Shown: one piece after another, positions 1 to 62,746 of the stretch
How the letters are laid out: each line of letters begins with the position of its first letter
Numbering within the stretch: position 1 is the stretch's first letter
Assembly: GCA_002786025.1 (NCBI GenBank)
Contig: NHNW01000001.1
Location: 1 to 64,000 of the forward strand
Direction: 5' to 3'
DNA: 64,000 nt
Origin: Zasmidium citrigriseum
Taxonomy: Eukaryota > Ascomycota > Dothideomycetes > Mycosphaerellales > Mycosphaerellaceae
Position numbers and translations under genes: made by a program
The notes under the pieces: model-generated
Told to the model about the DNA's origin: nothing
The model's input: only the letters and a program-made list of their open reading frames with translations
The model's database searches: none

Positions 1-1
1 A

Positions 2-115
2 CCCTAACCCTAACCCTAACCCTAACCCTAACCCTAACCCTAACCCTAACCCTAACCCTAACCCTAACCCTAACCCTAACCCTAACCCTAACCCTAACCC
101 TAACCCTAACCCTAA
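2..115. repeat. Telomere, (CCCTAA)n
   Basis: Nineteen uninterrupted copies of CCCTAA follow a single leading A. This is the C-rich strand of the standard TTAGGG-type telomere of filamentous fungi, reading 5' to 3' from the chromosome end. There are no degenerate copies. The array stops abruptly at position 115 and is followed directly by RIP-mutated DNA, so the window begins at a true chromosome terminus. Confidence 0.99.
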
Positions 116-5559: not shown

Positions 5560-6669
5560 ATAGTAGTAGTTTAACTCCGCCTACTTAGAAGTACTTCTTA
5601 GATAGCTCTTTAATAGAGCGTAATAGTAGCTAATATCGTCGAAGAAATATATCTCGCCCTTATCTAATATAAGAGCGGCGGTAATCGAATAGATACTCGT
5701 ATCTCCCTAGCGTTCGTAGAAGAAGCCTCTAGATTAATCGAGATAGGTAAAGAAGTTATTATAAGCTTTACTTCGAAACTATTCTAAGCTTACGATCTCG
5801 AAGTTGTCCTAAAAGTAGTAGTAATTCGACGTCTTGCTACTATCTTCCGAGATAAAACTTAAATAATTGTTCTTACTAATATATTATAGATAGTTACGTA
5901 TAAATACTTTAACGTAGGTCTACAAACTTAGGACTATACCGCTAATCTTATTAAACGAGATAACGAAGCTATACTTCTTACCGTTCTCGGCTATAAACTT
6001 AAAAGGGTCGTACGGAACGTCGTAGAGTAACTCGATGTCTAGCTCTACTCTCTAGTACTAGTCGTACTTAACTACTAGTAGATATTAGTAGAAGAACCCG
6101 GACTAATATCGACATATGTAACGATATAACTCGCTAGCAGCGTATAGAATATCTCCTCTTACGTCTAAATCTTGTCTTTCTAATTCTACGAACTACTAAT
6201 CCAACCTACCGGGGTAACTCTAATGCTAAACGTTAATCTTACCGTACTTTGCTCGACCCGATGTTGCTACTATAGTTGCGGTCTTGAAATCCTGCGTGAA
6301 GTCTTCGTCGTTGAGAAAGACCCAGTCGTAGTGGTGGTGGCGGTTGAACCGGGTTTCGATGTCGTGGATGCTGTTGAGCATGCCTTCAAGTTCACGGTTT
6401 CGGACAAGCGAAATGAAGGCAGCTTTTATTGATGTTGGAACCTGCTCTGTCTTGAGGGATACTTGGGCGGCTTCCGAGCTTTTGAATTTCGCTCTTGACG
6501 GGTTGTGAGGTCGAGGAGATCTCGTTGCGGCCGTTTGATGTGGGCCGGATCGAGGCAAATCCTGAGGTGATCGTTGTGTCGAAACATGGCTGAAGGCGCT
6601 GAGCAGAACGAAGAACAGAAACGTCGTCACGATGGCCTGTATCGCACGAGAACGTCCTGTCAGTCCCAT
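5560..6669 (-). pseudogene. KRE2/MNT1-type alpha-mannosyltransferase (GT15), RIP-truncated
   Basis: The family is made of Golgi type II enzymes that add mannose to protein and lipid glycans. From the ATG at 6669 the first 147 codons are intact: a short cytosolic tail, one membrane anchor (AIVTTFLFFVLLSAF), a stem, then GT15 motifs such as AAFISLVRNRELEG and YDWVFLNDEDF. At 6228 the frame hits TAG. Reading on in the same frame through 5.6 kb, the rest of the GT15 domain is recognisable but RIP-altered: YDWYWR reads YD*Y*R (about 6050-6066), a YDPFKF block near 6010, and GFFYERW reads GFFYER* (about 5708-5727). Every stop sits at a Trp or Gln position, and His and Cys often become Tyr. The 3' end is uncertain. 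An upstream in-frame Met exists at 6798, but 6669 lies just before the anchor. The intact stub could at most make a protein without a catalytic domain. Confidence 0.9.
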
Positions 6670-13239: not shown

Positions 13240-16200
13240 TCATAGATCACTCTTCAGCAACGGCCTCGCAAGTTGCAAATACCCCTCAACAAACGTATAC
13301 GGCGCCGGATCCTTCCTAATCCTCGTATCCTCCTCACCAACATCGAAACTGACAAACTTCGTCTTTCTCTCAGCTGCATCTCCCTCCCCTTCCACATCGT
13401 AAGGCTGCAGCCACTTCCACAGCCCCTTCTTGCCCGAAATAGGCAGTCGTATCGGCGCCGCCTTCCCAACATCATCCTTCACCGGCGACGTCGGCTTCTG
13501 CTGCCAGGTATCAGGATCAAGTGCAGGGAGATTGCCGTCGGCAAAACGGGGCACATCCTTGGATAGTAATTGTGGTCCCAAGCGGAAGAAAGCCGTCATC
13601 CGGCTGAATGCTTGCTGGATGGTCCATGGCTGCAGTCGAAGCGATTTAATCGGTAGGATCGGACTGTATGCGTGAATGGGTGTGTAGGGATCGATGAGCA
13701 TGGTCGTGACGAGATAGTTGCTCAGGCGAGCTTGCTCCATTGTCGTCTTCCGGGCTGCGAGCATGTCCGGGTGGGTGTAGTTGACTGACAGCGGCGGGAA
13801 TTGTTCAGCTGTGAGGTTGACGGTATTCGGGTTGCCGGACGATGGGAAGTAGGTGTAGAGCTTCTCCCAGTTGGTGGTCAGCTGTGATGTCTTGGATGAG
13901 CTGTGCTGGAAGTATCCCACGACTCCATCGAATGGCCGTTCGACGTCGCCGAGTTTGATTGGAAACTTGTACGAAAGGAGATCCGCTGCTTCGGGATACA
14001 TGATGGGATCACTTGGATTCCCGGGTAGTCGGGCACTGAGAGTGGACTGCTGTTTGATCGGCGGAGCTTGTAGCTCGACGGACCACCCTACATTCACCAA
14101 AGCCAGAGGCTTGCCGACGATAGAGTTGGCATATGCCGAGTAGTCGCTGGGAGGGTATGGCATGTTCTGGATTGCACCGTTGATCATGTCGAAGAAGCCT
14201 TGGAGATATCTCGCAGCGGTGTCTTTCGCATCCTTTGGATTGGTGTACGTCGTCATGCGGGCAATTAGCTGATCTAGCTGCGGGCTTCCAGTCGATATTC
14301 CCGGTTTTGGAGGGTCAAAAGGGAGCCATTTGCTGCTTGCATTGGTTCCGGAGGGACCACCCACACGCACCTCACGATACTGGCAGGATGTTAGCAAGGA
14401 CACCCGTTAGTCATGTTTTCCAACTTACAAACGTCCCGTCTGGCAGAAAGAATTGCAGCCCACAGTCCTGGTAGTTCAACACCAACCACCCAAAGACAGG
14501 CGACTCGTGCTGATCATCGCAGGTCTCGTGCCATGAGGCTGAGCCACTACTCCAACCAGGTCCAGCATTCAGAAACGATGCATTAATCCTCGCACTCTGA
14601 TTGATCGAAGGAGTCAATTGCGTGAATCGACACAGCGGCCATTCGCCTGCCTGATTGTCAGGCTCTTGATACACCGTGTTCAGCGTATTGGACAGCTTTG
14701 TCGAATCCTTCGCATCTCGGAGGAAGTCCGGACTGAGATAGTCACTCAAGCATGGATAGAATGACGGTGGAGGTTGCTGTGCTGTTCGGGGTTTCGGCTT
14801 TGGCTGGATTGCACACACCGCCTGTCCAAATCGATCGATGATGTTCAACTTCGTGAACAGCATTTGGCCATGTGTGACCCCCTTGAAAGGGATGTGCGAG
14901 CTACTTCCGAAGTTGATCAGATCACCATACGGTGTCAGAGCACTCTCACCCCCAATCAACTCCACCATGCTTGGACGGTCCACGGTGCCATCGTCCTTCT
15001 TCCTCGGAACATCGACCTCGATCGCTGCAGATGCAGTGACAGCAACGTTCATCGGATTTGTGGATTTGCCTTGCTGTCGAAAGCTCGGCTTGACATGGGC
15101 TCCATCATATCTTGTCAGCAAATGCTCCGTCAAGCCAGACAGAGGCGCGGAGATAAATTTGAGCTTCTTCAGCGGAGACTGATCGTTGATCATGCGGTCT
15201 TTCTCATCCTGCGACAGTGGCAAGGCTGGCCCGGCACTGTCGAGCACTTGCTTGACAGCAGCTTCCAGGGAGAAGACAGGCTGCGGCGTCAACACGACAC
15301 GACCGCTGATCATTCGAGAATCCTGCTGAGCGCTCCTGTCAAGTCTCTTGTTCAGCCCATAACGCAGCTCTGCATGAGGCTGGCCGACGGGATATTTGCG
15401 AAGACTGACTTGCCATTCGTCTCGGTCGATATGAAAGTACTGCGCCTCCCATTCGATGAACAGTGGTTGGAATGGATTCTCTTTCCATTGCTGGTGTCCT
15501 TTCGTGGTGGTGGTGTCTTTCGACGTAATACGAGAGAGGAACTCGGCAACCAACTTCAAGCCCGTCGATTTCACACTCTTGGTGAAGATTGTGCCGGAAG
15601 TCGGCCCCAAGAACGTAGAGGCATTGGTCATCGATGCTTGAGTGGGTTGGACTTGATGTTCGAGCCTCGCAGTCAATGTCTCCATGTAGTCTGCTGGCCA
15701 TCCTGAGTCAAGTCCCGCGATGCAAAGTGTCGGATCCTTGCGCATGAAATATGGCGGCTTGCTGGATTGCTTGCACTGAACCTTCGCTTTCAGTCCGTCA
15801 ATCGTCTTTTTGCAGTCGCGAATGACGTTCTGCAGCCCGCTCGTACGGCCCAACCCAGTGACATCTCTCCCAGTCAAGATGGTCTCTTTGAGCTCTTTGA
15901 CCTTGACCTTGCACTGATTGATGAGATTGGGATCATTCTTTCGGCGACTGCTCACATATTTCCACCATTCGGCGAACAATTCCCACTGTACATTTCGCAG
16001 CTTCTTTGTCGCTGCATCGAGGGTGGCCTGAGCTTCGTTGAGTTGATTCAAGATGACTTGCTCATCTCGAGTGGGAAGTAGAGGCGGCTTTCCAGCAGGA
16101 CTTGATCTATTGAAGTGCCATTCGGTACCGCCATCGCTGGAGGCGTAGTTGTTCTGGAATGCTTGGTCCTGGGCTTTCACCCGAGCATTGTACGAGTCGT

Positions 16201-17587
16201 CCGCCGCATACAGCAGAGCGGAGAGATCGACCACGTCATCGATGATATTCTGCACGTTGACCACGTCCCCGAAGACGTCCTTCTCACTGACCATGTGGGC
16301 CGAATTATGAGCCTGGAGGAATGTCAGGATGCCATCAAGCGGCGTCGTTCCCATAGAGACCGGCTCCATCTTCGTTTTGTCGGAGAAGAGATTGGCAGCA
16401 TGGTCTGCTTGACCAGCAGCCTTTTTGTTGATATCGTAGGACACGTTGTAGATGGAGCCATGTACTATTACAGCACAGGAGCCTGCTTTGGACAACATCG
16501 TTTGAGCTGCATCGTCGGTCGATCCTGCTGCTAATTTAAGGAAGAGGTCTTGCAATCGATCCCCCAATGGCTTGGTGCTCTTGTCATCAGCCCATAAGGG
16601 GGAGTTGGCATCGCTCGTGTGCCATCCGAGAACAAAGTAGCTCGCTGATGCTTTTGTAAGGCATTGTCGATCCTCATCCTTAGTGGCCTCTTTATATGTA
16701 AAGCTGTCGATGATGGAAAAGACATTGCTATTGTGAGGCACATAGTCCGGGAATAGAGGGTTCGACGAGTTCATCACAGTCAATGCAGTCTTTTGCAACT
16801 TTGCATCATCCACCCAGGCCGATGGAGATGGCGGTTTCCCGGGAGTCCAATCAACGTGCTTCGATCGTCTCCCCAAGAAGACTTCACCCTGCTGTTGAAG
16901 AGGGTCGGCAGATGCTCCAGTCGCAGGCTTGTCGAGGGAGACTCCACCTGATAGTTGATCAGACACAAAAGGGACCATGTCGACTTCGAGATCGGCCGAA
17001 TCATCGATGTCTCCAATGCGGCGAACGACATCGCTCTCCACAATCCATGACTGGTACTCCGGAAGCAGTGGTGGCTCATTCTTTGGCTCGGCTGTCCTGA
17101 CATCGAGACGACGTATTACGAGCCAACGATTTGGAACTTTGCGAAACTGAGGTTGAGGATTCGCATCTTTTTTGTATCCTTGAGCTTCGCTGTATGCAGA
17201 TCGATAGAGACGTGGAAGGGACCAGTGGAGGTAGACACCAAGTCGATTCTTCCGGAAAGTTGGGGGGTTCTTGCCCAAGTCACTGATGCGTGGATTGCGT
17301 TCTGCTGGAGCCGTCAAATGGAAGTCGACGTGGTCGAGAAGATCGTGCTGGATCAGCGAGTTGTCCAGTTGAAGGCCGATGTAGTTTGGCTGTGTGATGG
17401 GTGCGAGTCGAGGCACTCCATCCTTGTCCTGGCAATATCCTGGGCTCAAGGAGAAGGCGGACAGATCTGCGGGAATGCAGACTGTTTCCATTGCTGGTTT
17501 AGGAGGTTGAATCCTGAAAGCGTCTTCAATACCAACCAAGGCGAGTAAAATGGAGGTGTTTGCAGTGCAATGCCACACTGTTGCCAC
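13240..17587 (-). CDS. Giant uncharacterised protein of the DUF6603 block (1432 aa)
   Basis: Exons 14429-17587 and 13240-14379 join through a 49-nt GT-AG intron to give 1432 aa; the join reads DGTF-YREVRVGG. No signal peptide or convincing membrane helix, so probably cytosolic. Seen: an N-terminal segment with GVYLHWSLP (about residue 116), PNRWLVIRR (about 152) and WIVESD (about 180). A coiled-coil-like stretch lies at about 505-600 (LNEAQATLDAATKKLRNVQW and onward). Near the end are PVFGWLVLNYQDCG, GKPLALVNVGW and FPIKLGDVERPFDGVVGYF. From memory, the GVxLHWxLP / PNRWLV / WVxESD set and the terminal LGDxxxxxDGxVGYF motif recur in long unannotated bacterial proteins. I have no function for it. 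The start may instead be Met33 at 17491. It is tandem with, and downstream of, the 594-aa gene. Confidence 0.8.
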
Positions 17588-17943
17588 TGTACATTACGAC
17601 TATGCGGTGCCCGCGCAGGCCACCGACACAGACACATTCTCGTGACTGTCTTCGTGGCCGCCATAGCCGCTTGAAGGGAGAATGCACGATGCCGAGGGGC
17701 TGAAAAGAGTTCGTGAGGTCTGGACGGAGAGCTGTGAGCCTCCTGCAGCCATGCATGAAGTCGGAGATTTAAACTCGCGGCACGATTACTGTGGATTCAA
17801 CCCGGGAGCGGTGGATATCGTTATCTATGCTGAGTAAGCGGGCTGGTCTAACTCAATCCTTTTGACCCCTTTTTTGTTTCAGATTCTGCAGCGCAACCAG
17901 TTCTTCAACATCACAACCATCGCAGCACTTCTTCTCCAATTCA
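17588..17943 (-). promoter_or_regulatory. Intergenic upstream of the 1432-aa gene
   Basis: A 356-bp gap between the tandem minus-strand genes. It must hold the terminator of the 594-aa gene and the promoter of the 1432-aa gene. Small frames here have no recognisable content. Confidence 0.4.
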
Positions 17944-19779
17944 TCAGTGGATCCCCCGAGTAAAGTTCTGCTCGATTTTGGGATCGTCTGGGAAGTTGTC
18001 GTCAATCAGTGGGAATATCCCACCATTCCTCATCCACGTCGCCGGACTCAGCACCCGCAACATGGAGTTGTACGACCGATTGAACATGCATGGCGCCACT
18101 CGAGGACTGAAGCCAATGTTGAGGATGCAGGCAGTGTACCGGCTCTCGAAGGTCATCGCAACACCACCAGATGATAACCGTTTGGCGGGCACGGGCGTCC
18201 GGACAAGTCCTTCGGCATTTGCCCACGAAACACACCACGGGCTTCGCATTTGAAAGCCATACAGATTCACAGCGACTGGATCATTGCCTGGGTCCGGATC
18301 CATGGCTGTCTTCCACATGCGTTCGAAGGATACTTGCCGATCCAGCCCGGGCTCTAATTCCCGGAACGGCGACGTCAGCATGTTCCTGTCTCCCGCACAT
18401 TCTGGATAGGGCTCGAATTTTTCCATATTCTTCTCATCGAGAACAATCACCGGACGGCAACGAGGAAGATCGCCTGGTATGTTGACGAGCGTTGGCATGT
18501 CTCGAAGCTGGCCAGTCACGATGGTCCAGGCTGCCTGTCTAACTGCCGGCTGTGCAAGATTCCTCAAAACCGTCGAGACGACTGCGTCCTGGCGGAGCTC
18601 CTTTCCCATCGATGCAGGCGACGTCTTTGGCAGCTACTCAGCCATGTCAGTACCTTGCTTCTGTCTGGCATTGGGAAGACGTACCTGCGGCCAGCAATTC
18701 TTCGGCTTGGATGTACTCGCGCTCACGGCGCTAGCGGCTAGGAGATACGTGAGAAAGGAAAGCACATTCGCACGCTGGCCATCACTGAGGGCGGCGATAG
18801 CTGCGCCACCGCCATGCGTCTTCAGCAGGCCATCTGCACGCTGTCTCGCCGTCCTCCACACTGCCGCATACAGTTGCGTCCGGTAGACGTAATCAGCTGG
18901 TACGCCACTCTGGAAGTAGTCATGTGTCGGACCATGGATGCCGGTGGAGAAGTCGGTGGTCAAAAGAACGCTCGACGGTGAAGGGTACAAATCTCCGACG
19001 TACGGGTCGATGAATTGCTTGTTGAACGATCCGAGTTTGCTGACCCAACAGGAGCCCCAGAGATACGTCCACCCGACTGTATTGGCCAAGGAGCTCCCGA
19101 GCCACTGCGAATCGACCTGGTAATTGACTTGAATGTCGACCAAGTCCGTGAACTGGCCACTGACAGTGAAGTGCGGGATCCATTCCTTGTTTTCCAGGTC
19201 GCTCTGCTGGACGCCAAGGATATTCGAAGGCGAACCATTCTGCAACAGCTGCACACGATCTGCCAAGCGAAGCCGGAACATTGCATGCGACCTGACCAGA
19301 CCTTTCACTTGCAAAGCATCGACACGCCCATTATACTCGTCGATCAGAGTCTGCAACGGGACCCAATTCTGCTGCGCCATCTTCGGAGTCTCAAACTTGA
19401 CCATGGCCAGATACCACTCTCTCAGGCAAAGTCGTGCGGTAACCCAGTACTCCTGAGATTCAACCGGCTGAGCGGATGTGTTGAACTCGATGATGACTGC
19501 GCCAAAGCAATCCTCGAGGTTTTGAGTCGGTATCAGTTCATCAGTACTGTCATGCACGACCCGAAATCCCCAAAGGTTCTCCCACCGGATACTATCTTCG
19601 GCGCCCATTGCAGAAGTATCTTCAGGGACCAAAAGCGCCGGATCTGCGTCGCTGATAGGAGCCCAAGGCCACGTTCCTTTGTTCTTGCCAGGCCAGAGTC
19701 GTGTCTTTCCTCCCTCCTGGAGTTGCCATCGTACTCTCATGTAATGGAACTCCATCTCTAGACCCATGCGTACCGACAT
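17944..19779 (-). CDS. Uncharacterised 594-aa protein of the DUF6603 block
   Basis: Exons 18685-19779 and 17944-18633 join over a 51-nt intron (donor CAG|GTACGT, acceptor GAGTAG), giving 594 aa in frame. No signal peptide, no membrane segment and no family I recognise. The protein is rich in Trp, Gln and Asp, with blocks such as WENLWGFRVVHD, LREWYLAMVKFE and GWTYLWGSCW in the first half, which suggests a mixed alpha/beta fold. The second half has LVNIPGDLPRCRPVIVLDEK and SPWCVSWANAEGL. It is divergent from the 1701-aa DUF6603 gene across 421 bp and directly upstream of the 1432-aa gene, so it is the hinge of the cluster. The function is unknown and only context links it to the rest. Confidence 0.78.
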
Positions 19780-20200
19780 CGTGGCGAGTCAACTGTGAAG
19801 GAACGAGTCGTCTACCCCGATCAACCTTGCGTCTGATCTCAAGATGTCCCTTCGATGCGAGACGGCCTGCGAGTCCCCAAAAGCCGCTGTGGGGAGGATT
19901 TAGGCTACATTACGCAGCATTTCAAGACCTACTTTTGATAGCTGCACACCTGCAGCTTGGACTCGAACCTTGCCGTGCTCCTTCAGCCCGCCTCAGCTTT
20001 TACTTTCGTATCTACGCCAGCCACAAACGACTCGTGCCACCTGATCCGACCACTATCGCCGGATCTGTTCGTGGGATTGCTCAAACATTTGACGCAGTGC
20101 CAAATATCCCGGAAGCGACTCCACATCCATCTCAAGCATCGCAGAATAGCGATGGCTGTCATGTCAACACTGGCAGTCTGCTCCATGATCAACAAGCACC
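19780..20200. promoter_or_regulatory. Bidirectional promoter inside the DUF6603 block
   Basis: 421 bp between divergent ATGs at 19779 (minus) and 20201 (plus). It contains the near-palindromic pair CCCC...GTGGGG near 19876-19897; GTGGGG fits the loose CreA consensus, which is weak evidence. No competing gene is evident. Confidence 0.45.
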
Positions 20201-23200
20201 ATGGTCTCGGTGCTGTCTGACGGTGGGACCTTGACGGACAACTGGATCGCCTTTCTGCGTCAAACGCAAGGAGTGGATCCCAACACCCTCTTCACAAAGG
20301 GCGACACACAAGGAGGTTCACCAACCGCGGATGGCTTCACATTCAAGGCGAAAAGTCCGCTATCCGGGACGTTTGATAGCCGCTTCAACATCAAGCAGTT
20401 TGGAAAGTCTGACAGTCGAGTTGGAGACGATGACAGTGGAATACTGTTGGCGCTGTCGCAGCCAGATCAGACCAACGTGACGCTGGGGCAAATCTGGAAG
20501 GCTTTTGGTCTTGACAACGGCGGAAAGGCCCCCGATATCGTAAACGCTATCTTCAAGGCTATTGATGGAGGCACTCCCTTGAAAGTCTCGTCAGCCGATG
20601 GAAGTCGCAACGGAATCTGGCTCATGCCTGCAGAATCGAGCGCGACACCATTTCCCGACTTCCAACCCTACGGCGAGCCTGGTGATCGACCAATCCATCT
20701 CCAGCAAGCGACATCGCTTACATTCCTCCTCGATGGGGCGAAACTGGCCAGCACGCTTGGCAACGTGGCGAACACATTGAACCAAGAATTCGGCCTGTCT
20801 CTCAAGACTCCCCAGAAGGTACCAGATGATATCTTCAGCTTCTCGGTCGTCCAGACCACGGTCGGCACGTTGACTGGACCCGCGACATTCACCCTTGAGT
20901 CTACATTCAGCGTTATCTTCACATTCAAGTTAGGCGGCTTCTTTCTCCGTCTACAGTACACACCGGCTGGAGTCGTACTCGGAATACAGGAGGATCTGTC
21001 CGTTGATGGCGATTTCTGGCAAAAGCTGTCCAACATCATATCTGGCGATGCCAATGCATCGCCCTCTACGCAGGCGAACAACATCCTCGCGCAAGCACCA
21101 ATGTCCGATGCCAACAATGCAAGGCCACAGGTCCATCTCTGGAACGCTCAAGTGTCGAAAGACTTTGATGGAGGCATCAACTGGGCTTTGGCCGTGGTTG
21201 TCGACTTCGTCATTAACAAAACACCCGTCAGTGCTCTACTATCTTACCAAAGTCGGGACGGATCCTTCACCGGAGGCCTCTTGTATGGAGATACGAGCGA
21301 ATCCTCTGACGATTTGCTACTGCCGACCTGGTCACCTCCACCGAAGTCTATCACAGCGACGACTGTAGCAGGATTGGACTTGTACGATATGTTTCCCGAG
21401 ACGAAGAGCCTGCCTTCGAACATTCCACACGTCATCACGGAGGCGTCGATCGCGATTCTTTCTGGGCAGAAGCCTTCGGCCCTGTTTCTGTCCTTTGCCG
21501 TCACCGGCGGAAAGAACGACGATTCCGCCGACGTTGCCCAGGTTCCCTCACCCTTCCAATGGGATGACCTCACGTTCAGCGTTGTCAAGTCGACTGGTGT
21601 TCAAATTGCCGCCAGTGCCAGCTTTACGTTGAACCCTATGACCCAGGAGGATGCTTCGAAGTACGACTCTGCAACCCTCTACGCCGGCTTGACGTTCAAC
21701 TCGGCAACTCGCAGCTGGAGCATCCACGGTGAAGTCAAGAATCTTCAAATGGGAGTCCTTGCAGGCTTTGCCGACCCAGATAGCTCCTCAGCATTCGTTG
21801 CCCTCCTGGGCAAGCTTGCCATTCGTGATTTGACGGTCGACTATACCATGCAACGACAAATCGCAAGCAGCTTTCTAATGCTGGGCGCGATCAATCTCGG
21901 ACAACTCGAGCTCAGACTCGTCTATCAGTATGTCAGTGCAATGGCCTTCGAGCAGGGCGCGACCACGGCTGCTGCCAGCAATCCCAATGCGTTGGGCCCG
22001 GTGACTGCTTTGTCCAAGCCCACAAACACAGCGACAGCCTGGTCTTTCGATGCCTACCTAGGTGCAAGTGTCCAAGGCGCAGACTTAGGGACTATCGCCA
22101 ACTCCATCATTGACGGCGCTGGTGACAGTCTACCTCCCTTCGTGAGCAATATCCCAATCGGGGCGGCGGCAGATCCAGCAACATCACCCATCTCTCTGAA
22201 GGTGTCCAAGCTGACCACTTCTTCTGGCACCGTCACCAAATCCAGTTTACTGTTCACCTTGCGGATTGTCATCGATACTGTGGACCTTACTTTCATCCAG
22301 ATCGCTGACAGCGCCGATCCTACCAAATCTATCCCTTCCAGAACAAGGCGCCTCCTTCGAGTCTCTATCGGGAAGCTCCCTCTGGTCAAAGACATCCCTG
22401 TCGTTCAGGATCTGCCTCAGCCCTTCGACAAGCTGCAGTATGTGTGGGTCAGCGCGGCTGGCCAGGCATGGAGTGCTGCCGACGTCGATGCCGTGAACAA
22501 GCAGCTAGGCAGTGCGGCCCAATTGTACTACAAGAAGATCAAGACCGACCGACCAAACGACGACAAGCCTCCTGCCTCTACATCTGCGACTCAGGCACCG
22601 CCCTCTCCGCCGGCATTGGCCGTCGGCCACCACTTGATTGTCATACAGGACGAGGCGGTTGTTCTTGATCATGTGTTTGGCAATCAGACTTCGAAGCCGG
22701 AGGACGGCCCAGAGAATGGGGCTGGTACGAAAGATAACAATGCAGCTGCCAATGGGAGTGTCACTGGAGACGACAAAGATAAGCAGGTCGCCGCCCCAGA
22801 ATCCAGTCCCACCAAGGGCACATTGCAAAAGAAGACTGGCTTACTCAGTATCAATGCCATATCGCTCCAAATGGAGGACAATCATCTGTGGATCAACATC
22901 GATGCAACAGTGGCACTGGGACCGATCGAGATGACTTTGCTAGGCTTTGGCATTGGTGTTCCTTTGAAGCTTCCCTCAGGAAAGCCGTTAACGATCAACA
23001 ACCTCGCAGACGAGGATACCATAGGAGAGGTCCTCGGTGACATTGCGAATCACATCCGGTTGAAGGGCATGGGAGTCTCTTTCTCAAAGTCTCCGCTCAT
23101 GCTCTCTGGCGTATTCCAGCACGAGAAGACGGCGACACGGGATGCATATCGGGGTGGGATTGGAATATCATTCCCACCTTACACTTTCGTCGCTGTCGGG

Positions 23201-25457
23201 GAGTACTCCAAGGTCACGCTCATCAATCACGATTACAAGAGCGTCTTTGTCTTTGCCAAGCTGGACGGTCCTCTCGTCACTCTCGAATTCGCAACCATCT
23301 CTGGCGTCCGTTTGGCTTTTGGTTACAATTCTGTCATTAGAGCTCCACGGGTCGAGGAATTGACCGACTTCCCGCTCATCTCAAACGGCGGCGTGGACGG
23401 AACAGGGAATAGCCCCATCAACATCCTCTCCAAATTCTGCGGCACCATCGACAACCCTGGCTTCGTGACTCCCCAAGAAGATGCATTCTGGTTCGCCTTG
23501 GGCATGACGATCACTGCATTCGACATTCTTGCCATCACGGCAGCTGCTGTCCTTTCATTCAGAGACAGTGGCGTGGTCGTGAGTCTTTACGCAGATGCGG
23601 TGGCCAAGATGCCTCCTGGTGTCACCAACGAGCACGAGATGATTCTCTACGTTGAGATTGGTATGGTCGCTGAGATGAACTTTGTCGACCAATACTTTCG
23701 ATGCGAGGCTGCTTTGGCTCCGACTTCGTTCCTGCTGGTTCCTCAATGCCATCTTTATGGTGGCTTTGCGTTGTGCTATTGGGTAAGCCATCATTTATGA
23801 CCACACGACCGTCTCCTGACTTCATTACAGTTCGGCAGCAATCCCCACGCTGGAGACTGGGTCTTCTCCGTCGGCGGCTATCACCGTTCTTTTGACGTCC
23901 CTAGCCATTACCCGCGGCCACAACGTCTTGGTATATCTTTCATCATCGGAGACAACATCAACATCACTGGCGAGGGGTACTTTGCCATCACGCCCAAGGC
24001 TGTGATGGGCGGTTGCACGATCCACATCTCCTTGAGCGTTGGGCCAGTCTCTGCATATCTGGACGCCGCTTTTGATGCTTTGATCAACTTCCATCCTATC
24101 CATTACGTTGTGGATATGCGGTAAGCCCTCAGAGTCAGTGCATTCTCGAATGGATCAGCTAATATACTGCAGTATCACGGTCGGAGTGGAGTGCGACATT
24201 GACATCTGGTTCATTCACATCCATGTCAGCCTGCACATCGGCGCAGACTTGCATATCGAAGGACCAGAGTTTGGAGGTGTTGCACAGTGAGTCTCAACGA
24301 AAAGTGGCGATGAAAGAACGATGCTAACATTGAACAGCGTCGACTTCTGGTTCTTCGGCTTCGATGTCTACTTCGGATCCCATGGTAGTCTACCCGATCC
24401 GCTCTCACTCGACGCATTCTGGGACCTCGTCCACAAGGCTGGACCACAGAACATTGCTGCCGAAAGCAAGAATCCCGAGAACCTCGACGTCAATCTCAAG
24501 CATTTGCTCGAAGAGGGCAACTTTCCAATGCCATCCCAGCCTGACAATGGTGCAGTCGGCAAGCCAGATAGTACAGGAGCTGGAGCCAAATGGTTCGTCA
24601 AAGGAGGGAGCCTGTCGTTCCGCGTGTCCGCCGAGTTCGCCATCAACAAGGCTTACATTGCAACGTCTTCCAGTGATGCCGCCCGAACTAGTGATAAATC
24701 GCAAGACAAGTCTCACTACCTGGACAAAGCTACGACCGTGAACCCTCCTGGCCCGGTCGATCAGATCTACAGCACACCCATGCAGATCGGCCGTGATGCA
24801 TCCAACAAAGGCCCAATCGACTCCTATCTCGAAGTCACTATCAAGAACAAGGCTGGCGAAGTGATCACAGATTGGAAGCCAACATTGGTCGTCGAAAAGC
24901 TTCCAGCAGCGCTATGGGCACCGTACTCACCAAGCACCGACCCAATGCTCAATCGACGCGGCGACAATCCGATGCTCTCCTCGAGTGGTACCAACGTCAC
25001 TCTTTGCACGGGTGTGAGTATCAAAGCTCCTGACCCGATACTGGCCATCAGCAAGATCCCTCAGTTCAATGCGACGGAATTTCATAAGTTTGGAATCAAG
25101 AAACGAGACGGGACTGATTGGCTTGTTCCTGTTGTCGATCCAAATGACAAAGACCAGCCAGCAAGCATTCCTCCTGCTATGTTGGACCCTGCAGAGGAGA
25201 AGAAAGATGGGCCGACGAGATGGGCTGATAGAAAGACGACCTGGGCGACTGCTGCGAACGAGGCGAAATCGAAAGCTAGCGACATGGCTTCATCGTTCGC
25301 CGCTATGCTGGGGTGGGAACAGTCGACACATTTGAAGACTGATTTACCTGTCCGCCTCGTGACTGGAACGAAAGCAGGCAGCGTGGTGAATGCTGATGTG
25401 GTGGACGGACTGCAGAACTTCTATCTTGCACTTCCCCGAGTTGCTGCAGCCGCTTGA
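20201..25457 (+). CDS. Giant DUF6603-domain protein (1701 aa)
   Basis: Four exons: 20201-23782, 23831-24120, 24173-24286 and 24338-25457, with introns of 48, 52 and 51 nt, all GT-AG. The sum is in frame and gives 1701 aa. The start context is accATGG. The first 750 residues are rich in beta-like segments (QTTVGTLTGPATFTLEST and similar). Low-complexity linkers lie near 780-800 and 825-870. The DUF6603 region follows at about 900-1350: LGPIEMTLLGFGIGVPL, IRLKGMGVSFSKSPLMLSG, a VFVFAKLDGPL strand, FSVGGYHRSFDVPSHYP, GYFAITPKAVMGG and VDFWFFGFDVYFG. The C-terminal 350 residues are variable. DUF6603 occurs in bacteria and fungi and has no assigned function. No signal peptide or TM helix is seen. 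The neighbours make a multi-protein cassette likely. Confidence 0.87.
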
Positions 25458-25590
25458 TCGTCAGACTAAAGCATTGGCACAACGTACTGCTTTCATTTAC
25501 AAGGTCTGTCAACTATCTAAGTGTCACTTGACGCCGTACGAGAACGCCACATTGGAAAATAATCTTCAATCTACTTGCCAACCATCAACA

Positions 25591-26460
25591 TCAATCCCTC
25601 GAGCTCGTAACCCTGGGCATCCAAAGCAAACTCGCAGCCAGCGCCGCGAGTGCCGCCGCAAACCACGCAACGCCGCCATAAACTGACAACGCTTTTCCTT
25701 GGATCCATGGCCCATGTTGAGCTGCCTCCGGGTTGGGGTTGTTACCTGAGCCAGATGCGCCACCGGACGAATATACTCCATTGTCGGGAATCGATTGGGT
25801 GAAGGCCAACAGACCGTAGAGCTGAGCGAAGCCGTACAGAATGGCGCCAATGACGAAGGAGAAGATTAGAATGCCGTTGATCCAGGGTATTGCTTTGGAT
25901 ATGAAAGAACGTTGCTTTCCATCAGAGCGGTGGTCAGCTTCGTTGGCCTCCGTTCCGTCTTCGCCTTTCGGATGATGGTGATGGTGATGGTGATGACGCC
26001 TGTCGTGATGGTTTTGCTGATGGATTTGAAAGAGTCCAGGAGCAACAGCAGCAAGAATGCTCATGCCAATCGTGAGCAGGAAGGCAACGCCGATGAACGC
26101 CGTGCTTGCTATCGCCAAGTTGCCCGCCCAGTGAACTTCCTGACAAAGGCGCTCATCGCCATATCTCGCGCTGGTCCCGCTCCCAAGAGCATTCCAAGAT
26201 TCGCAACTCGTCTTCCCCCGACCGAACGGGGGATAAGAAGTGCATTCGTAGCCATTGGAAGTGAGGCCGCAGACGACGAATGGCGAGCGGTATTCGGTGT
26301 AGTCGAGAGTCGACTTGTCCCAGTTGGCCTCGGAGAAGGCCTTGTATTGATGACGGATGGCCCATTTCTTGGATGTTGTTGCTGTGATGGCGAAGGCGAT
26401 GGCAATCGTTGCCAGTACCAAAGGGATCAAGGCGCGGAGAAGTCTTGTGAACAGTGCCAT
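25591..26460 (-). CDS. Four-TM claudin/SUR7-like membrane protein with His-rich loop
   Basis: 289 aa in one exon. Hydrophobic helix 1 (about 9-28) starts the protein. A Cys-containing extracellular loop follows (VVCGLTSNGYEC...TSCESW...RLCQEV). Helix 2 is about 113-137, helix 3 about 191-213 and helix 4 about 257-280. This order resembles fungal claudin-like/SUR7/PalI membrane proteins. The cytosolic loop between helices 2 and 3 carries HHDRRHHHHHHHHP, a possible metal-binding run, followed by an acidic segment. It lies convergent to the DUF6603 gene (133 bp between the ends) and divergent from the 1209-aa gene. It could be the membrane partner of the block or an unrelated insertion; sequence alone does not decide. 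Confidence 0.75.
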   Translation of the reverse strand: MALFTRLLRALIPLVLATIAIAFAITATTSKKWAIRHQYKAFSEANWDKSTLDYTEYRSPFVVCGLTSNGYECTSYPPFGRGKTSCESWNALGSGTSARYGDERLCQEVHWAGNLAIASTAFIGVAFLLTIGMSILAAVAPGLFQIHQQNHHDRRHHHHHHHHPKGEDGTEANEADHRSDGKQRSFISKAIPWINGILIFSFVIGAILYGFAQLYGLLAFTQSIPDNGVYSSGGASGSGNNPNPEAAQHGPWIQGKALSVYGGVAWFAAALAALAASLLWMPRVTSSRD

Positions 26461-27012
26461 TTTCCTGGGAAGATGGAATCACGCGTTCGAGGAGGGTTGG
26501 AGTGGACATCCAACATGCCAGACCGAAGCATGTCGTCTGTTAATACCACATCATCATTGCCGTCGATGAAGCGGTGCTGCCAAAATTGTTGGTGCAGGAT
26601 TGGTGGCTGGCTGGTTTCGAGACGTGGCGTCAACTCCTGACTTGGTGCATTGAACTATCCCCAATGGACCGGACCAGACTCCTTCTCAGCTACCTGCAGA
26701 GACGCCATGACCTACGAAAGAGGACATTCTCATCCAGGAAAAGAAATCTCCGAATGGCTGGTATCGTGTCCATCATGCACATGCACTCTGCTATTTCTGG
26801 GAGACTGGTTAACAGCTCTTGGAGACCATGCTTCAGCTACATTTGTGAAGGCATCAGTTTCGAACGCACCTCGGCGACGACAGATCTCGTGATGCAGAAG
26901 TCAACTCAGTGAGAGAGCGCCCAGATTGCCAGTTGGAGGGCCCCTCAGCTTCAAGTGTCGTTTTCCAAGCCAATGAATTGCCCTCAAGACTGGACAAACG
27001 ATATCTGCCGAC
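26461..27012. promoter_or_regulatory. Bidirectional promoter, claudin-like / 1209-aa gene
   Basis: 552 bp between ATGs at 26460 (minus) and 27013 (plus). I see no repeat or alternative gene. A shared promoter would tie the membrane protein to the block. Confidence 0.45.
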
Positions 27013-30000
27013 ATGGCCACCGACCTGTCAGTGAGGAAGACCCAGGAGGTGCTGGACGAGCTGGCCGGCAAGAATAAGTTCATTCCAGCGGTGCTGCGAA
27101 ATCATATGCAACTATACTCCTTCTACAAACCGAGCCTCGAGGCTGGAAACTACACAATCGAGGCCATTCAAACCATTAACTCCCAAAGCTTTCAGCCAAA
27201 CTCGGACAAAAATGCGGTTTGGCCTGTCGCAACCAAGCGGGTGTTCAACAAGACATCCAAGGATGACACCAGCGGCCATGTTGTCGCTCAGCAGTTCGAA
27301 GTCATGGCTCCACAATTCTCTATCGAGCAAGCGATGATCAACAGCTTCTATCCACCGGAGGGCCACCAAGATGAAGCTCGCATCCTGCCTCACATCGTCC
27401 TAAACGATCCTCATTTCCCTTGGGAAAGAGAGGCCGGCAAATCAGACCAAGTACGTGGCCTTCGAGATCCCGACGTTGATGAAGGCGGCAAGAAGATCTT
27501 GAGTAGCTCAGGGCAGACGGTCTACCGCAGCAAAGTGCCATGGATCGCTCTCCTCGTCTTTGATCCATCAGAGCTGAAGTTGACCGCCCAGCAAGCTGAA
27601 GACCTCAAAATTACTGGGTTCAGCCGGGCCGATGCAAAGGACATTTCCCAGGCTCCAGCAAATGGCTCGTTTCTCATGCAGGTGAAAGACTATCTTGGCA
27701 TGCCATCGAGTCAACGTATCAACTTTGAGCACGGCCTCTCCAATGATCCTGAAGAATTGCAGGAGATCTCTGCGAGTACGGAGATGACTCAAGTCATCTT
27801 TCCCAGCAAAAGCACACTTCAGATGCTGTTTCCCGATGTTGATCATCTGGAAGCAAACAAATATCTGGCCCACGTACGCGCAGTCAACACCTTCGGATTT
27901 CCGGATGCTGGCGTTGAGCAAGTTGGGAACTTCTCGATTGTAATCTCTGCTCGAACAGCCAACATGAACATCACGAAGCCATCCACGCAGATCTGCCATC
28001 TCGTCTCAATCGAGCATCTCGATTCCACATTGCCAGAGATTTCTTCCGCCATCGCAGCAGATCCCAAAGCAGCAGAGGAACGGATTGGACTGGTGTCGCT
28101 CCTTGCGTGGACTTACACTGCCCTGCCGCCGAATCCCGTCAACTTTGTTGACACAATAGAGAATCTCGTCTCCGGGATGCAGACGCTTCGCATGCCCGAG
28201 GAGAAATTGGCGAAGCTCAAGGCGGCCATCGTGGATCCTCCGGTCAATAGTCAGCTGAAGCCGACAGACAAGCAGGACGTTCTACGTAATATGTGCAAGA
28301 GACTCAGTGCGGGCTACTCCCTTGCTCGCTGGCGATGTGAGACTGGCGAAGAGACAGCAGCATTCAACAGGGGTCCATTGGTGCCGCAGCCTGTACGAAG
28401 CCCGCCGGTCGATGATTGGTGTGCCGGCTCCAACACTTCAAAGGAATATCAAATCCTGGACAAGAGCACTGGTCTCATGGATCTCTCCTACTCGTCTGCA
28501 TGGCAACTTGGCAAGACGCTTGCAATAGCTGACACGGGCTTCAACTCGGCTTTGATGAGGTTTAGATCGCAAGTCTACAGCTGGGCACTGTCCAGAGCCC
28601 AGAAGGCCAAAGATGACGTTACGAACAAAAACGCTTTGATCATGAAGCTTTCACAGGATCTCAAAGGCATTGTGAAAGTCACTTCGCAGAACGACTTCAT
28701 CCCACGGAGAGTTGTACCAACTAATCCGAAAGACCAAGCACCCAACGCCATCGACAACCCCAAGTTGAGGCTGGCACTACGCACGAGCATCAGGAATGTT
28801 ACTAGCACACTAAGTTCAACGACAGGCGATGCCATCTGGGACGAATGGAGTCTCGACGAGCCCAGGAATGACGACTGGGCAGTCATTAGCAGTTGGATTA
28901 CTCAGAAGCTCTCACTGTGTGATATCCCGGCACATGTCTTGATACCTGATCCATCGTATATCCCAGAAGAGAGTCTGAGGTTCTTTCACATCGACGACGC
29001 CTGGATGGACTGCATGATCGACGGGGCTTTGTCGGTTGCAAATCATCTCGATCGAGATGATGACTTGGTCAGAACATACATCAAGCAAGTCTACAACGAG
29101 TACCTCGATCACGAAGTCAAAGGCCGCGACAGGGATGGTAAAGTTGTTTCAACGGGCATCAAACCGCAAATTCCATGCTACGGCTTTATCCTTCGAAGTC
29201 AGATCGTCAAAGTAATGCCTGATCTGCGAATCACCGTCAAGTGGTGGTCACCAACGGCTGAAGACAAAGCGTTGTCGGACAAGATGGCTTCTGTGTGCAG
29301 ATACACCAAGCTGGACGACACTACCATTCTCTGCCTACTGGACCGACGACCGGAGGAGCTCGACACCATCCTACTTGAGCAGCCGCCACATCAGCAGCGC
29401 TTCAGCATGGGCTACGCCTTGTTCCAAGACGTCAATGCCGACAACTCATATCTTGCCATGCGTCTTCGTCGGCTATACACTAAAGGAGCTCCAGATACTG
29501 AGTGGCCTGAAGCACTAGCAGACTCAAACAATCCTTGGCCAGACCACGTACTCCCCCGAAAGGGCCCTAATTGGTACGATTGGAACTCAAGAATGGTACA
29601 GGTGAAGAACCTGGCCACTGACATCAATCGTCATCTGCGTTTCTCGGCCGGTGATCAGGCCTATCAAGACTTCGTGCCAACCAGTTCTGAGCTCGCGATG
29701 GAGCTGAACGACCCTTGCTACTACTTTGCAATCAAGCCTCAGCTAGATCAGTCTGCGAAGAGAACAGTGACGCCACGGAACCGACAGCTTTGGAACAAGG
29801 AGACACAAATAAGTCCACAAGACCCGGTGAAAGAGGACATCACAGTCTCACAGCCCCTTTCCAACACTTCAGAGCCAGTCGGAGTTCCACTGGCAACAGA
29901 AGCTTCAAAGGTCGATCCGAGCAAGATACCTGCAAGAGTTGGGGGCTCCAATGGCATCACTTGGATAGACAAGACCACTGTCATTTCGCCGCAGTCTCGA

Positions 30001-30642
30001 GCACCACCGCAAGGGACTACACCTCGACGCTGCTTCACGCTTGAAGTCTTTGCCGACTATAAGGGGCCAATGAAGCAGTTCAACGACCCAAATGCATACC
30101 TCGCCACCAAGACAGACTACCTGTACGACCTCATCTTCAACGTACGGCGGATTCCTTCCACGCGGGGACTTGATCAGCTTTTACAAGAAATCACAATCTA
30201 CATCCCACACACGGGCTTCTCCAACTCCGATGAGGGCCAGAAACTCCAGGTCGAGCCTTTGCTATATGACACCTACGCCGACGCTCGTGCTCGCATGATT
30301 GCCAATCAACGCTTCGTCATCTTCCTCGTTCACACGAAGACACACTTGGAAGCTCGTCTGATCCCACGAGGTGCAACGTCCTTCCCTTCGAACGACAAGC
30401 AAGTGCCGACGACGATGAGTATCAAAGACAGGAGATCGGAGGATCTGTCGTTCCGGTTGGCGGAAGTGGATGTCCCTGCCGTGACATTTAAAAAGTCTCT
30501 ACCGGCGTATCAGACGACAGAAGGAGGGAATATCAAGATCTTCTTTGTCGAGAGATATGTTATGTCGAATGGGCAAGTGTATAATGCTGCGGGGAATGGA
30601 GGACAGCCTTGCTATGTTGTGAAGCTGAACAAGGCTCAGTGA
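27013..30642 (+). CDS. Giant uncharacterised protein of the DUF6603 block (1209 aa)
   Basis: A single 3.6-kb exon, 1209 aa, start context gacATGG. No signal peptide or TM helix. Motifs seen: LPHIVLNDPHFPWERE (about 126-141), VPWIALLVFDPSEL (about 175), a block ending in SYSLARWRCETGEETAAFNRGP, GLMDLSYSSAWQLGKTLA (about 487) and SLRFFHIDDAWMDCMIDGAL (about 654). From memory, the PHIVLxxxxxPWER, YxxAWQLGRxLAL and ESLRFFxxDxxWxDAxxDGALS motifs recur in long hypothetical bacterial proteins, including neighbours of DUF6603 genes. I cannot verify this here. The lack of introns over 3.6 kb, unlike its cluster partners, is compatible with a more recent bacterial ancestry but does not prove it. Function unknown; likely a subunit of the same assembly. 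Confidence 0.82.
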   Translation: MATDLSVRKTQEVLDELAGKNKFIPAVLRNHMQLYSFYKPSLEAGNYTIEAIQTINSQSFQPNSDKNAVWPVATKRVFNKTSKDDTSGHVVAQQFEVMAPQFSIEQAMINSFYPPEGHQDEARILPHIVLNDPHFPWEREAGKSDQVRGLRDPDVDEGGKKILSSSGQTVYRSKVPWIALLVFDPSELKLTAQQAEDLKITGFSRADAKDISQAPANGSFLMQVKDYLGMPSSQRINFEHGLSNDPEELQEISASTEMTQVIFPSKSTLQMLFPDVDHLEANKYLAHVRAVNTFGFPDAGVEQVGNFSIVISARTANMNITKPSTQICHLVSIEHLDSTLPEISSAIAADPKAAEERIGLVSLLAWTYTALPPNPVNFVDTIENLVSGMQTLRMPEEKLAKLKAAIVDPPVNSQLKPTDKQDVLRNMCKRLSAGYSLARWRCETGEETAAFNRGPLVPQPVRSPPVDDWCAGSNTSKEYQILDKSTGLMDLSYSSAWQLGKTLAIADTGFNSALMRFRSQVYSWALSRAQKAKDDVTNKNALIMKLSQDLKGIVKVTSQNDFIPRRVVPTNPKDQAPNAIDNPKLRLALRTSIRNVTSTLSSTTGDAIWDEWSLDEPRNDDWAVISSWITQKLSLCDIPAHVLIPDPSYIPEESLRFFHIDDAWMDCMIDGALSVANHLDRDDDLVRTYIKQVYNEYLDHEVKGRDRDGKVVSTGIKPQIPCYGFILRSQIVKVMPDLRITVKWWSPTAEDKALSDKMASVCRYTKLDDTTILCLLDRRPEELDTILLEQPPHQQRFSMGYALFQDVNADNSYLAMRLRRLYTKGAPDTEWPEALADSNNPWPDHVLPRKGPNWYDWNSRMVQVKNLATDINRHLRFSAGDQAYQDFVPTSSELAMELNDPCYYFAIKPQLDQSAKRTVTPRNRQLWNKETQISPQDPVKEDITVSQPLSNTSEPVGVPLATEASKVDPSKIPARVGGSNGITWIDKTTVISPQSRAPPQGTTPRRCFTLEVFADYKGPMKQFNDPNAYLATKTDYLYDLIFNVRRIPSTRGLDQLLQEITIYIPHTGFSNSDEGQKLQVEPLLYDTYADARARMIANQRFVIFLVHTKTHLEARLIPRGATSFPSNDKQVPTTMSIKDRRSEDLSFRLAEVDVPAVTFKKSLPAYQTTEGGNIKIFFVERYVMSNGQVYNAAGNGGQPCYVVKLNKAQ

Positions 30643-59694: not shown

Positions 59695-60019
59695 CCTGAC
59701 TCAAGCCAATCGTGTCAGAACGGCTTGTCCCCGTTGTGGTGAAGTATAGGAAAGAGGGAAGCGGGGTCGAAGGAAAGGGAAGCGAAGTCAGTCAGAACAA
59801 CACGAGCTTATATATACCTTTCTTAATCTGGGCTGATGTCGTCCAGTCCAGCTCGCTTGGCAATGGGTGCACGAGTACGAATCGAAGGAGCCATCCAATG
59901 TGCTTGCCCGGGTGGAGTTGGGGGTAGCCTAAACGTTAGTTTGTGTCATCTCAAGTGGATTACCTGACTTTTCGTCAAAACTGCCCAACTGCTTAACTGC
60001 TTAAGTGAAATCTGCCTAA
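59695..60019. other. Transition from gene island to RIP island
   Basis: 325 bp upstream of the epoxide hydrolase. CA and TG are still normal here, up to about 60017 (GTGAAATCTGCC), then vanish within a few bases. It includes the duplicate AACTGCTTAACTGCTTAAGTG at 59988-60008. Confidence 0.5.
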
Positions 60020-60095
60020 AGCGGCTTAGCGTCTCGGGACTTTCTATTCTCTAACCTTACCTCTCGACTTTAATAAACCTTTATCCTATTATAGT

Positions 60096-60133
60096 TTTAC
60101 TATAAAGTAAGATTTATACTTTATAGAGAAATA
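60096..60133. repeat. Direct repeat B, copy 1, with internal hairpin
   Basis: Contains CTATAAAGTA and its inverse TACTTTATAG separated by 8 nt, then AGAGAAATAG. It is matched by 63436-63474 in the same orientation. It lies about 80 bp inside the RIP island edge. Such paired copies could be the ends of an LTR element or two copies of a small insertion. Confidence 0.6.
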
Positions 60134-60324
60134 GGCTAGAGTTATAATTAGGCTATTATTCTTAAAGTAGGGATATCTTAGACCTACGCCTAAGGAAAGA
60201 GCAAAGGAGAGAGCCGTTAGAGACTATAATTAAAAGCTTACTATTATTACTACTTAATTTACTCGCTTAGAATTACGCTATTCTATACTTAGTATAGGTT
60301 AGGTAGAGGATTCCCTATTTAGTT

Positions 60325-60361
60325 CTTCCGCGAAGTAAGGGCCCTACTTCGTAGAAGAATA
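60325..60361. repeat. Hairpin motif, CGAAGTA...TACTTCG type
   Basis: Inverted repeat CGAAGTAAGGG / CCCTACTTCG with no spacer, followed by TAGAAGAAT. It belongs to a small family with members near 62168, 62305 and 62749. Confidence 0.6.
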
Positions 60362-62156: not shown

Positions 62157-62345
62157 CTAATTACTAGAATTCCTCTATAAAGCGGCGTATATATATCGTA
62201 GAAGAATTACTTATATTTAGAATATATAGCTTACGTATACCGCGAATCGACTAGGTAGTCGTACTCCTTATTCTTAACTTACGTATATATTTCTAAGTAC
62301 TAGAATTTTTCTACGAAGTAGCGTATATATATTATAGAAAAATTA
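62157..62345. repeat. Tandem duplicate of about 140 bp containing hairpin motifs
   Basis: CTAATTACTAGAATTCCTCTATAAAGCGGCGTATATATATCGTAGAAGAATTACTTA-type text at about 62157-62213 recurs at about 62293-62350 as CTAAGTACTAGAATTTTTCTACGAAGTAGCGTATATATATTATAGAAAAATTACTTA-type text. Each copy is followed by a (A/G)ATCGACTA / GTCGACTA stretch. The copies are about 136-140 bp apart and diverged. Confidence 0.55.
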
Positions 62346-62421
62346 CTTAGCTTTAAAGCCCTTAAATTAAATCCTTATCCTATATATACTACGAGTCGAC
62401 TAAGGGACGCTATCTTCCTCT

Positions 62422-62581
62422 TTCTTAACCTCTAGCCTAGTAGTATACCTCTTCTTAACCTCTAGCCTAGTAGTATAATCCTTCTTCTTAACCTACTTCG
62501 CTAGAACGGTAACGCTAAGTAGTAGTAAGGATTAGACGTCTAGTATAGCGATAGAAGGATTAGACGTCTAGTATAGCGATA
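62422..62581. repeat. Two short tandem duplications (30 bp and 28 bp)
   Basis: The segment TTCTTAACCTCTAGCCTAGT plus AGTATA occurs at 62422 and 62452 (30-bp spacing). The segment AAGGATTAGACGTCTAGTAT plus AGCGATA occurs at 62527 and 62555 (28-bp spacing). Both pairs are nearly perfect despite RIP, so they either postdate most mutations or mutated to the same saturated end state. Confidence 0.75.
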
Positions 62582-62746
62582 CGAGTATAAGACGTAGGCT
62601 AGTCGAGTTATTATAAGTTACGCGTAGGAGTAGAAGATATTACGAGACGGATAAGACGAGATAGACTACGAGTTCTTCTATAATAATAGTATACTATACG
62701 TACTAATAGGGATCCTTATAGCTTAGTAGTATATAGAGTATCGAAT

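What the first reader, a model, noticed from the sequence alone, without database searches (positions are those of the whole stretch)
13240..30642. Candidate undescribed multi-protein system: a DUF6603 cassette of four large proteins in a fungal subtelomere
Four unannotatable large proteins (594, 1432, 1701 and 1209 aa) sit in one 17-kb block with divergent promoters, interrupted only by a four-TM protein. The 1701-aa member has a DUF6603 region. Two partners have motifs (GVxLHWxLP/PNRWLV/WVxESD; PHIVLxxxxxPWER/YxxAWQLGRxLAL) that I remember from long hypothetical bacterial proteins. None has a signal peptide, suggesting an intracellular assembly. A conserved set shared by bacteria and fungi with no known role would be a new system, possibly moved by horizontal transfer.
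Basis: partly seen in the sequence, partly recalled or inferred. Interest (0 to 1): 0.87.

Follow-up and report, generated by a model that had tools for sequence, protein, structure and literature searches.

The report
Bacteria–fungi shared modular effector cassette
A block of giant uncharacterised genes beside a fungal chromosome end belongs to a gene set that recurs three times in this fungus and as a strictly ordered operon in many bacteria, with exchangeable, often enzyme-coding genes at one end and exchangeable recognition-type genes at the other, which points to an undescribed molecular conflict machine whose function is not yet shown.

Summary
In detail: proteins A (1432 aa), B (594), C (1701, DUF6603) and D (1209) plus a four-TM protein lie in 17 kb, 13 kb from a true telomere. 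The interpretation largely holds. The fungus has three diverged A+C+D cassettes; fungal A and D hits share 16 contig lengths (0.14 expected). In bacteria C-D-A is a near-invariant operon: D beside A in 78 of 78 genome loci, C before D in 73 of 73 testable ones, D behind 50 of 52 DUF6603 genes in 24 genomes; one plasmid has D-A without C. B is an orphan. Two parts were missed: E, downstream of A in 68 of 78 loci, with changing C-termini; and a variable gene before C (MBL hydrolase in 11 of 78; also ADP-ribosyltransferase-like, protease, lipase, LanM-like). Two fungal cassettes have the MBL. C is predicted as an amphipathic beta-barrel or groove; D (pLDDT 90) has no whole-protein structural match. 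Best reading: a constant chassis with swappable enzymes and recognition modules, most likely a toxin-delivery or other conflict complex, shared with Pezizomycotina since an ancient transfer. No paper found. Function is inferred.

The parts
13240..17587 (-). Gene A (1432 aa from a GTG; exons 14429-17587 and 13240-14379): GVYLHW..LP / PNRWLV / WIVESD protein, core of the bacterial operon
17944..19779 (-). Gene B (594 aa; exons 18685-19779 and 17944-18633): orphan, found only in the window cassette
20201..25457 (+). Gene C (1701 aa, three short introns): DUF6603 protein; a bacterial relative is predicted as amphipathic beta-barrel or beta-groove
25591..26460 (-). Four-TM protein; a relative lies in the C102 cassette, so a likely fungal accessory
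27013..30642 (+). Gene D (1209 aa, no intron): core protein; a bacterial relative is predicted with beta-sandwich (weakly Ig-like) domains and a helical insert
1..115 (.). (CCCTAA)n telomere repeat (setting, not part of the system)

Best explanation
C, D, A and E form a constant protein chassis. C (DUF6603) is an amphipathic beta-barrel or beta-groove protein that meets membrane or lipid; D and A are large scaffold subunits; E, downstream and in some loci in tandem copies with changing C-terminal modules, is a fibre- or adhesin-like recognition part. The gene before C supplies, in many loci, an exchangeable enzyme (MBL hydrolase, ADP-ribosyltransferase-like, protease, lipase, LanM-like, perhaps nuclease and glycosyltransferase). 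The most likely working is that of a conflict machine which recognises a target through E, breaches or binds its membrane through C and delivers or unleashes the enzyme. As no clear signal peptide was seen, release would be by lysis or at contact. Pezizomycotina fungi hold a diverged form; the window copy keeps C, D, A and the TM protein, without a recognisable E or MBL next to it. Shown: gene set, order, co-occurrence, variability of both ends. Inferred: complex formation, delivery, target and the role of every part.
Against: One plasmid (P. sonchi, L037) has D and a split A but no C in 13 kb upstream, and the two Paenibacillus plasmid copies show no E. No immunity or secretion gene was recognised by eye among the neighbour clusters seen in four or more loci (no dedicated search). 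C's barrel matches are loose (TM 0.1-0.2; rmsd about 12; pTM 0.51) and ApoB is among them, so a lipid-carrying groove is possible; the strand alternation has no control. Short-type C operons (e.g. L040-L049) show no closely spaced same-strand gene before C and were not scanned. Ten scanned front-side genes match no Pfam family (L064, L092, L101, L107, L113, L117, L120, L163, L170, and L085, an MBL by profile) and three look unrelated (VanZ, saccharopine dehydrogenase, subtilase). The bacterial MBLs L068 and L078 lie below the Pfam cut-off. Upstream neighbours vary in any operon between distant bacteria; I ran no matched control for enzyme content. No E or MBL in the first 40 kb of the window. 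A was not folded.
Confidence: 0.5

Rival explanations
1. An intracellular immune (anti-phage or anti-invader) system: C-D-A-E sense an invader inside the cell and switch on the enzyme, which kills or arrests the host cell.
For: The one bacterial MBL scanned resembles MBL enzymes of anti-phage systems (LmuA 2.9e-12, RTasMBL 1.2e-5; 6A-MBL 2.9e-6 and Avs1a 4.4e-4, both below cut-offs). No clear signal peptide (crude). Gene swapping and plasmid locations fit defence islands; CATRA and CHAT conflict genes lie 5-9 kb before one copy.
Against: No PADLOC model matches the core proteins scanned except a chance-level Csx24 hit for bacterial D (0.013). No NTPase or nucleotide-signalling domain in the core proteins scanned. 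Adhesin-, lectin-like and tail-collar modules at the back end and lipase, M91-like and ART-like fronts fit delivery better.
Confidence: 0.22
2. A structural, lipid-handling or developmental complex (spore coat, envelope, lipid transfer) with accessory enzymes, not a weapon.
For: C resembles lipid-facing beta structures incl. LptD and ApoB. D gives weak Ig-domain matches, S-layer proteins among them. Most hosts named are filamentous or spore-forming (host habit recalled).
Against: Patchy presence (DUF6603 in 15 of 147 genomes of the Chitinophaga family, the centre included; in 0 of 14 control genomes), 1-5 copies per carrier genome, plasmids, and turnover of both end genes are unlike core development genes.
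Confidence: 0.2
3. A known phage-derived injection system or Tc-type toxin that was not recognised.
For: One copy lies 9 kb behind a phage baseplate assembly protein V gene on a Paenibacillus plasmid; a tail-collar gene in one locus; the MBL matches a PHROG family labelled tail protein (phrog_7043, 9e-10, over residues 24-119).
Against: Bacterial C, D, A and window D give no PHROG match and the core proteins scanned no Pfam phage or Tc match; D has no viral fold match at E<=0.001; no sheath, tube or AAA+ gene was recognised by eye among recurrent neighbour clusters.
Confidence: 0.05

Closest known systems
Polymorphic toxin systems (Zhang et al. 2012, PMC3482391; passages seen)
   Same: Constant carrier with exchangeable enzymatic modules; overlapping enzyme classes (ART, glycosyltransferase, a kinase related to lantibiotic synthetases and alpha/beta hydrolase are in its table)
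   Different: Here the enzyme is a separate upstream gene in the loci seen, no constant immunity gene or clear signal peptide was seen, and the carrier is several uncharacterised proteins
Extracellular contractile injection systems and Tc toxin complexes (recalled)
   Same: Would work alike if delivery is right: multi-protein carrier, receptor-binding part, cargo
   Different: C, D and A as scanned give none of the matches expected of their structural proteins
MBL-fold enzymes of anti-phage systems (LmuA, RTasMBL, 6A-MBL, Avs1a) and ComEC
   Same: The MBL beside C is a distant relative
   Different: C, D, A, E match no PADLOC partner protein; MBL is only one of several front genes
Pfam PF20248 (DUF6603)
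   Same: C is a member
   Different: The family carries no function, and no paper in the searched library names it
Outer-membrane beta-barrels (OprD porins, TonB receptors, LptD)
   Same: Predicted strand pattern and best fold matches of C
   Different: No clear signal peptide, Gram-positive and fungal hosts, loose superposition

Membership tests
DUF6603 (PF20248) | Match above the curated cut-off | tested here: met
   234 bits against 27
Polymorphic toxin system | Exchangeable toxin domains on a constant carrier | tested here: inconclusive
   Change of the front gene seen, but as separate genes and without a matched control
Polymorphic toxin system | Toxin at the C-terminus of the carrier polypeptide | tested here: not met
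   The enzyme genes found lie upstream of C; in two fungal cassettes the MBL frame lies before C
Polymorphic toxin system | Adjacent immunity gene | tested here: inconclusive
   None recognised by eye among recurrent neighbour clusters; no dedicated search
Polymorphic toxin system | Secretion signal or secretion-system domain | tested here: inconclusive
   Crude hydropathy only, A's N-terminus moderately hydrophobic; no known domain in the core proteins scanned
Phage-tail-like injection system (eCIS, T6SS) | Sheath, tube, baseplate and AAA+ homologues in the conserved set | tested here: not met
   No PHROG match for bacterial C, D, A or window D; E only 0.014 to an unknown family; the non-constant MBL matches a 'tail' family
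Tc toxin complex | TcA/TcB/TcC (e.g. SpvB, RHS) domains | tested here: not met
   No such Pfam match in window A, C, D or in the Streptomyces C, D, A scanned
Known anti-phage systems (PADLOC 2023) | Core proteins match a catalogued system | tested here: not met
   none for Streptomyces C, A, E or window D; Csx24 0.013 for Streptomyces D
Transmembrane beta-barrel | Closed barrel of amphipathic strands | tested here: inconclusive
   amphipathic strands and mostly barrel hits, but rmsd about 12 and low TM-scores
Transmembrane beta-barrel | Insertion into a membrane | not testable with these tools
   needs an experiment

The most novel reading that the evidence does not exclude
C-D-A-E is a new, not phage-derived class of protein-delivery machine: a soluble beta-barrel translocator (DUF6603) on a two-protein scaffold with interchangeable targeting fibres and interchangeable enzyme cargo, shared by several bacterial phyla and acquired once by ancestral Pezizomycotina, where it diversified into several cassettes per genome, possibly with the MBL fused to C in some of them.
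Probability: 0.38. Interest if true: 0.94.

Novelty: categorically new. Interest (0 to 1): 0.83.

Why it matters
A near-invariant operon of large uncharacterised protein families, spread over Actinomycetota, Bacillota, Bacteroidota, and bins labelled Chlorobiaceae, Acidobacteria, SAR324 and Gammaproteobacteria, and present in three copies in this filamentous fungus, has no described function in the literature that I could search. If it delivers or unleashes the enzymes at its front, it is a new type of weapon or immune machine found in antibiotic-producing bacteria and in fungi, and a rare multi-gene set shared between the two kingdoms. The work turns 'hypothetical proteins' into a testable complex with proposed roles.

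Tried and rejected
B as a member: its first exon (381 aa) found no relative in a library of 5.8 billion proteins (the best 7998 candidates scored) and none elsewhere in the own genome; the joined two frames gave no profile match to C, D, A, E or MBL. A weak PADLOC PDC-M02A hit (0.0026) was set aside. The four-TM protein has no Pfam match above cut-off and no match to the core profiles.

Sequence searches of solved structures with profiles of D, A, C: no match at E<=1; E: only weak FN3/cytokine-receptor-like matches (0.17 and weaker). Two front genes with endonuclease/exonuclease/phosphatase-like motifs (WNI, GDFN.D, SDHL, read by eye; L064, L092) found no PDB relative, no Pfam match, and align with each other only in short pieces; one has a weak MnuA nuclease hit (0.0045), so 'nuclease' is a lead only.

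I considered that DUF6603 genes may also stand alone: the two of 52 without D have open frames of 1134 aa, and five sister loci of Chitinophagaceae show a weak D-like frame behind C (scores 16-24). Left out before the count of 52: one row that is a second piece of a counted gene and one partial match about 3 kb before a counted C.

The D tree is a quick one, with a very long C78 branch and letter make-up warnings for 40 of 73 rows; 32 of the 120 listed fungal hits were used.

Paper searches: (DUF6603, PF20248, IPR046538): none; broader, listings and abstract starts only. PMC3482391 was seen in passages. The accession IPR046538 was my recollection and may be wrong.

An early note counted 74 loci with C; the recount gives 73, which is used. 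One search put E in 56 loci by blast clusters; the profile recount is used.

Full report
OBSERVATION. The four large frames are present and open. C holds DUF6603; nothing else in them passes a Pfam or NCBIfam cut-off. The contig starts with an exact (CCCTAA)n array, so the block is 13 kb from a real chromosome end.

SAME GENOME. The 44.4-Mb genome has three DUF6603 places (none in the 14 control genomes of that call), and relatives of D and A lie beside each of the other two: contig C102 at about 170-188 kb and C78 at about 211-227 kb, 24-42% identical to the window's A and D, in a different gene order. Both have a metallo-beta-lactamase-like frame before C on the same strand (Pfam Lactamase_B 5.1e-6, above cut-off, for C102; 0.0071, below cut-off, for C78, but 2.3e-7 against the bacterial MBL profile). 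C102 has in addition an E relative directly behind D (1.4e-6; probability 90) and a relative of the window's four-TM protein (4e-6). So A, C and D are a true set. B is found nowhere else.

BACTERIA. tblastn on plasmids gave weak hits of A, D and C in Streptomyces and Embleya and of D and C in Paenibacillus; reading the regions put C, D and A side by side in four of five plasmid loci. The fifth, P. sonchi, has D and a split A but no C. A scan of the species-genome collection with gene A gave 153 relatives, of which 78 loci were kept. In these, D stands with A on one strand in 78 of 78 (in two, at a contig edge, A's open frame runs past D's start); C, D, A follow each other in 73 of 73 loci where enough DNA is held; E lies downstream in 68 of 78, and seven of the eight loci without any E on that strand hold under 300 bases beyond A. 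The loci come mainly from Actinomycetota, and from Paenibacillus, Chitinophaga and bins labelled Chlorobiaceae, SAR324, Acidobacteria and Gammaproteobacteria. Seen from C, 50 of 52 DUF6603 places in 24 of these genomes have D behind them. DUF6603 occurs in 15 of 147 genomes of the Chitinophaga family, the centre included. Copy numbers are 1-5 per carrier genome.

TWO VARIABLE ENDS. The gene before C changes. MBL of the ComEC kind stands there in 11 of 78 loci; in the ten listed, C's open frame begins 4 bases behind the MBL frame or overlaps it. Others above the Pfam cut-off: trypsin (L106), DUF4135, the LanM dehydratase domain (L094), hemopexin repeats (L088, L089), Pertussis_S1 with weaker Scabin-like, i.e. 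ADP-ribosyltransferase-like (L098, gap about 190-340 bases), Lipase_3 (L164). Below cut-off: M91 effector peptidase (L124, with a 154-aa frame between it and C, and L149) and a TET-associated glycosyltransferase match (L109) whose family is shared by Chitinophaga and Streptacidiphilus. Of 28 entries scanned (27 front-side genes, not all adjacent to C, and one N-terminal part of a fused C; two further entries were a fungal frame and the four-TM protein), ten front-side genes gave no family at E<=0.01 and three look unrelated (VanZ, saccharopine dehydrogenase, subtilase). Short-type C operons were not scanned. At the back, E has a conserved N-terminal part, a weakly FN3-like middle and changing C-termini; in 12 of 14 adjacent E pairs from 10 loci identity beyond residue 250 is at least 5 points lower (one of these on only 10 columns), in one pair 4 points lower (82 and 78%) and in one higher (28 and 32%). 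Recognition-type modules occur there: discoidin (L038), haemagglutinin repeats (L090), a hemopexin gene (L098), a phage tail-collar gene (L106), and below cut-off a beta-propeller match (L108); four of the seven long E proteins scanned gave nothing.

ORIGIN. In the D tree, 35 fungal and 38 bacterial rows each form one group (SH-aLRT 100, quick method), with deep paralogues in fungi (C102 and C78 copies; C78 has a very long branch). This fits one ancient transfer with later duplication; the direction is not shown.

READING. The layout front gene - C - D - A - recognition module, with a constant middle and changing ends, is that of a conflict machine. I hold delivery or unleashing of the enzyme by a membrane-meeting carrier as most likely (0.5), intracellular immunity next (0.22), a structural or lipid-handling complex third (0.2). 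Shown: gene set, order, spread, variability. Inferred: complex, delivery, target, role of each part. The window copy keeps the core without a recognisable E or MBL in its first 40 kb, so it may act with parts from the other cassettes, or may have changed function.

NOVELTY. No paper in the library names DUF6603, and broader searches showed no description of the operon in their listings; most subscription journals are not covered. The C, D and A proteins scanned match no catalogued phage, Tc or PADLOC system (the MBL does match a PHROG labelled tail protein). I therefore rate the system as categorically new, while its probable way of working resembles polymorphic toxins.

On rereading the calls I mended the identity range, the E-pair count, the spacing of MBL and C, the signal-peptide statement and the wording on cut-offs, and added P. 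sonchi, the PHROG tail match and the left-out rows.

Noticed in passing
window 1-6000 and 60001-64000: AT-rich blocks (30-34% GC against 48-57% elsewhere), perhaps mutated repeats of a subtelomere.
   Followed up: no
window 47808-50195: Rad26-like checkpoint protein; further neighbours are a Zn2Cys6 regulator, CoA-transferase III, 3-hydroxyisobutyrate-dehydrogenase-like, Fringe-like, MFS and acyltransferase genes.
   Followed up: partly
G023:C1 near 74 kb, 92 kb and 8.72-8.74 Mb: DUF6603 and D matches appear with identical scores near both ends of an 8.8-Mb Streptomyces chromosome, as if in terminal inverted repeats.
   Followed up: no
L164, L177, L178, L183: Chitinophagaceae DUF6603 open frames of about 3200 aa with a long N-terminal extension; the first 1099 aa of the one scanned match no Pfam family.
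   Followed up: partly
L182, L184, L185, L186, L188: A divergent DUF6603 type (open frames mostly about 1140-1160 aa) with a weak D-like frame behind it: perhaps a second class of the system.
   Followed up: partly
L035 22200-23276 and L037 19725-19964: PLD-like genes near both Paenibacillus plasmid cassettes; L035 also has baseplate protein V and GH-E nuclease genes upstream.
   Followed up: no
L037 13304-18655: P. sonchi plasmid copy with D and A (A split in two annotated genes) but no C upstream: a reduced or decayed copy.
   Followed up: no
L034 1-4104: CATRA-associated and CHAT-domain conflict genes about 5-9 kb before a Streptomyces plasmid cassette.
   Followed up: no
L069, L071, L076, L079, L081, L082: A gene of about 250 aa on the opposite strand just upstream of C recurs in six loci; not identified.
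   Followed up: no
window 17944-19779: B is an orphan 594-aa frame inside a conserved cassette: fast-evolving gene, lineage-specific effector or doubtful gene.
   Followed up: partly
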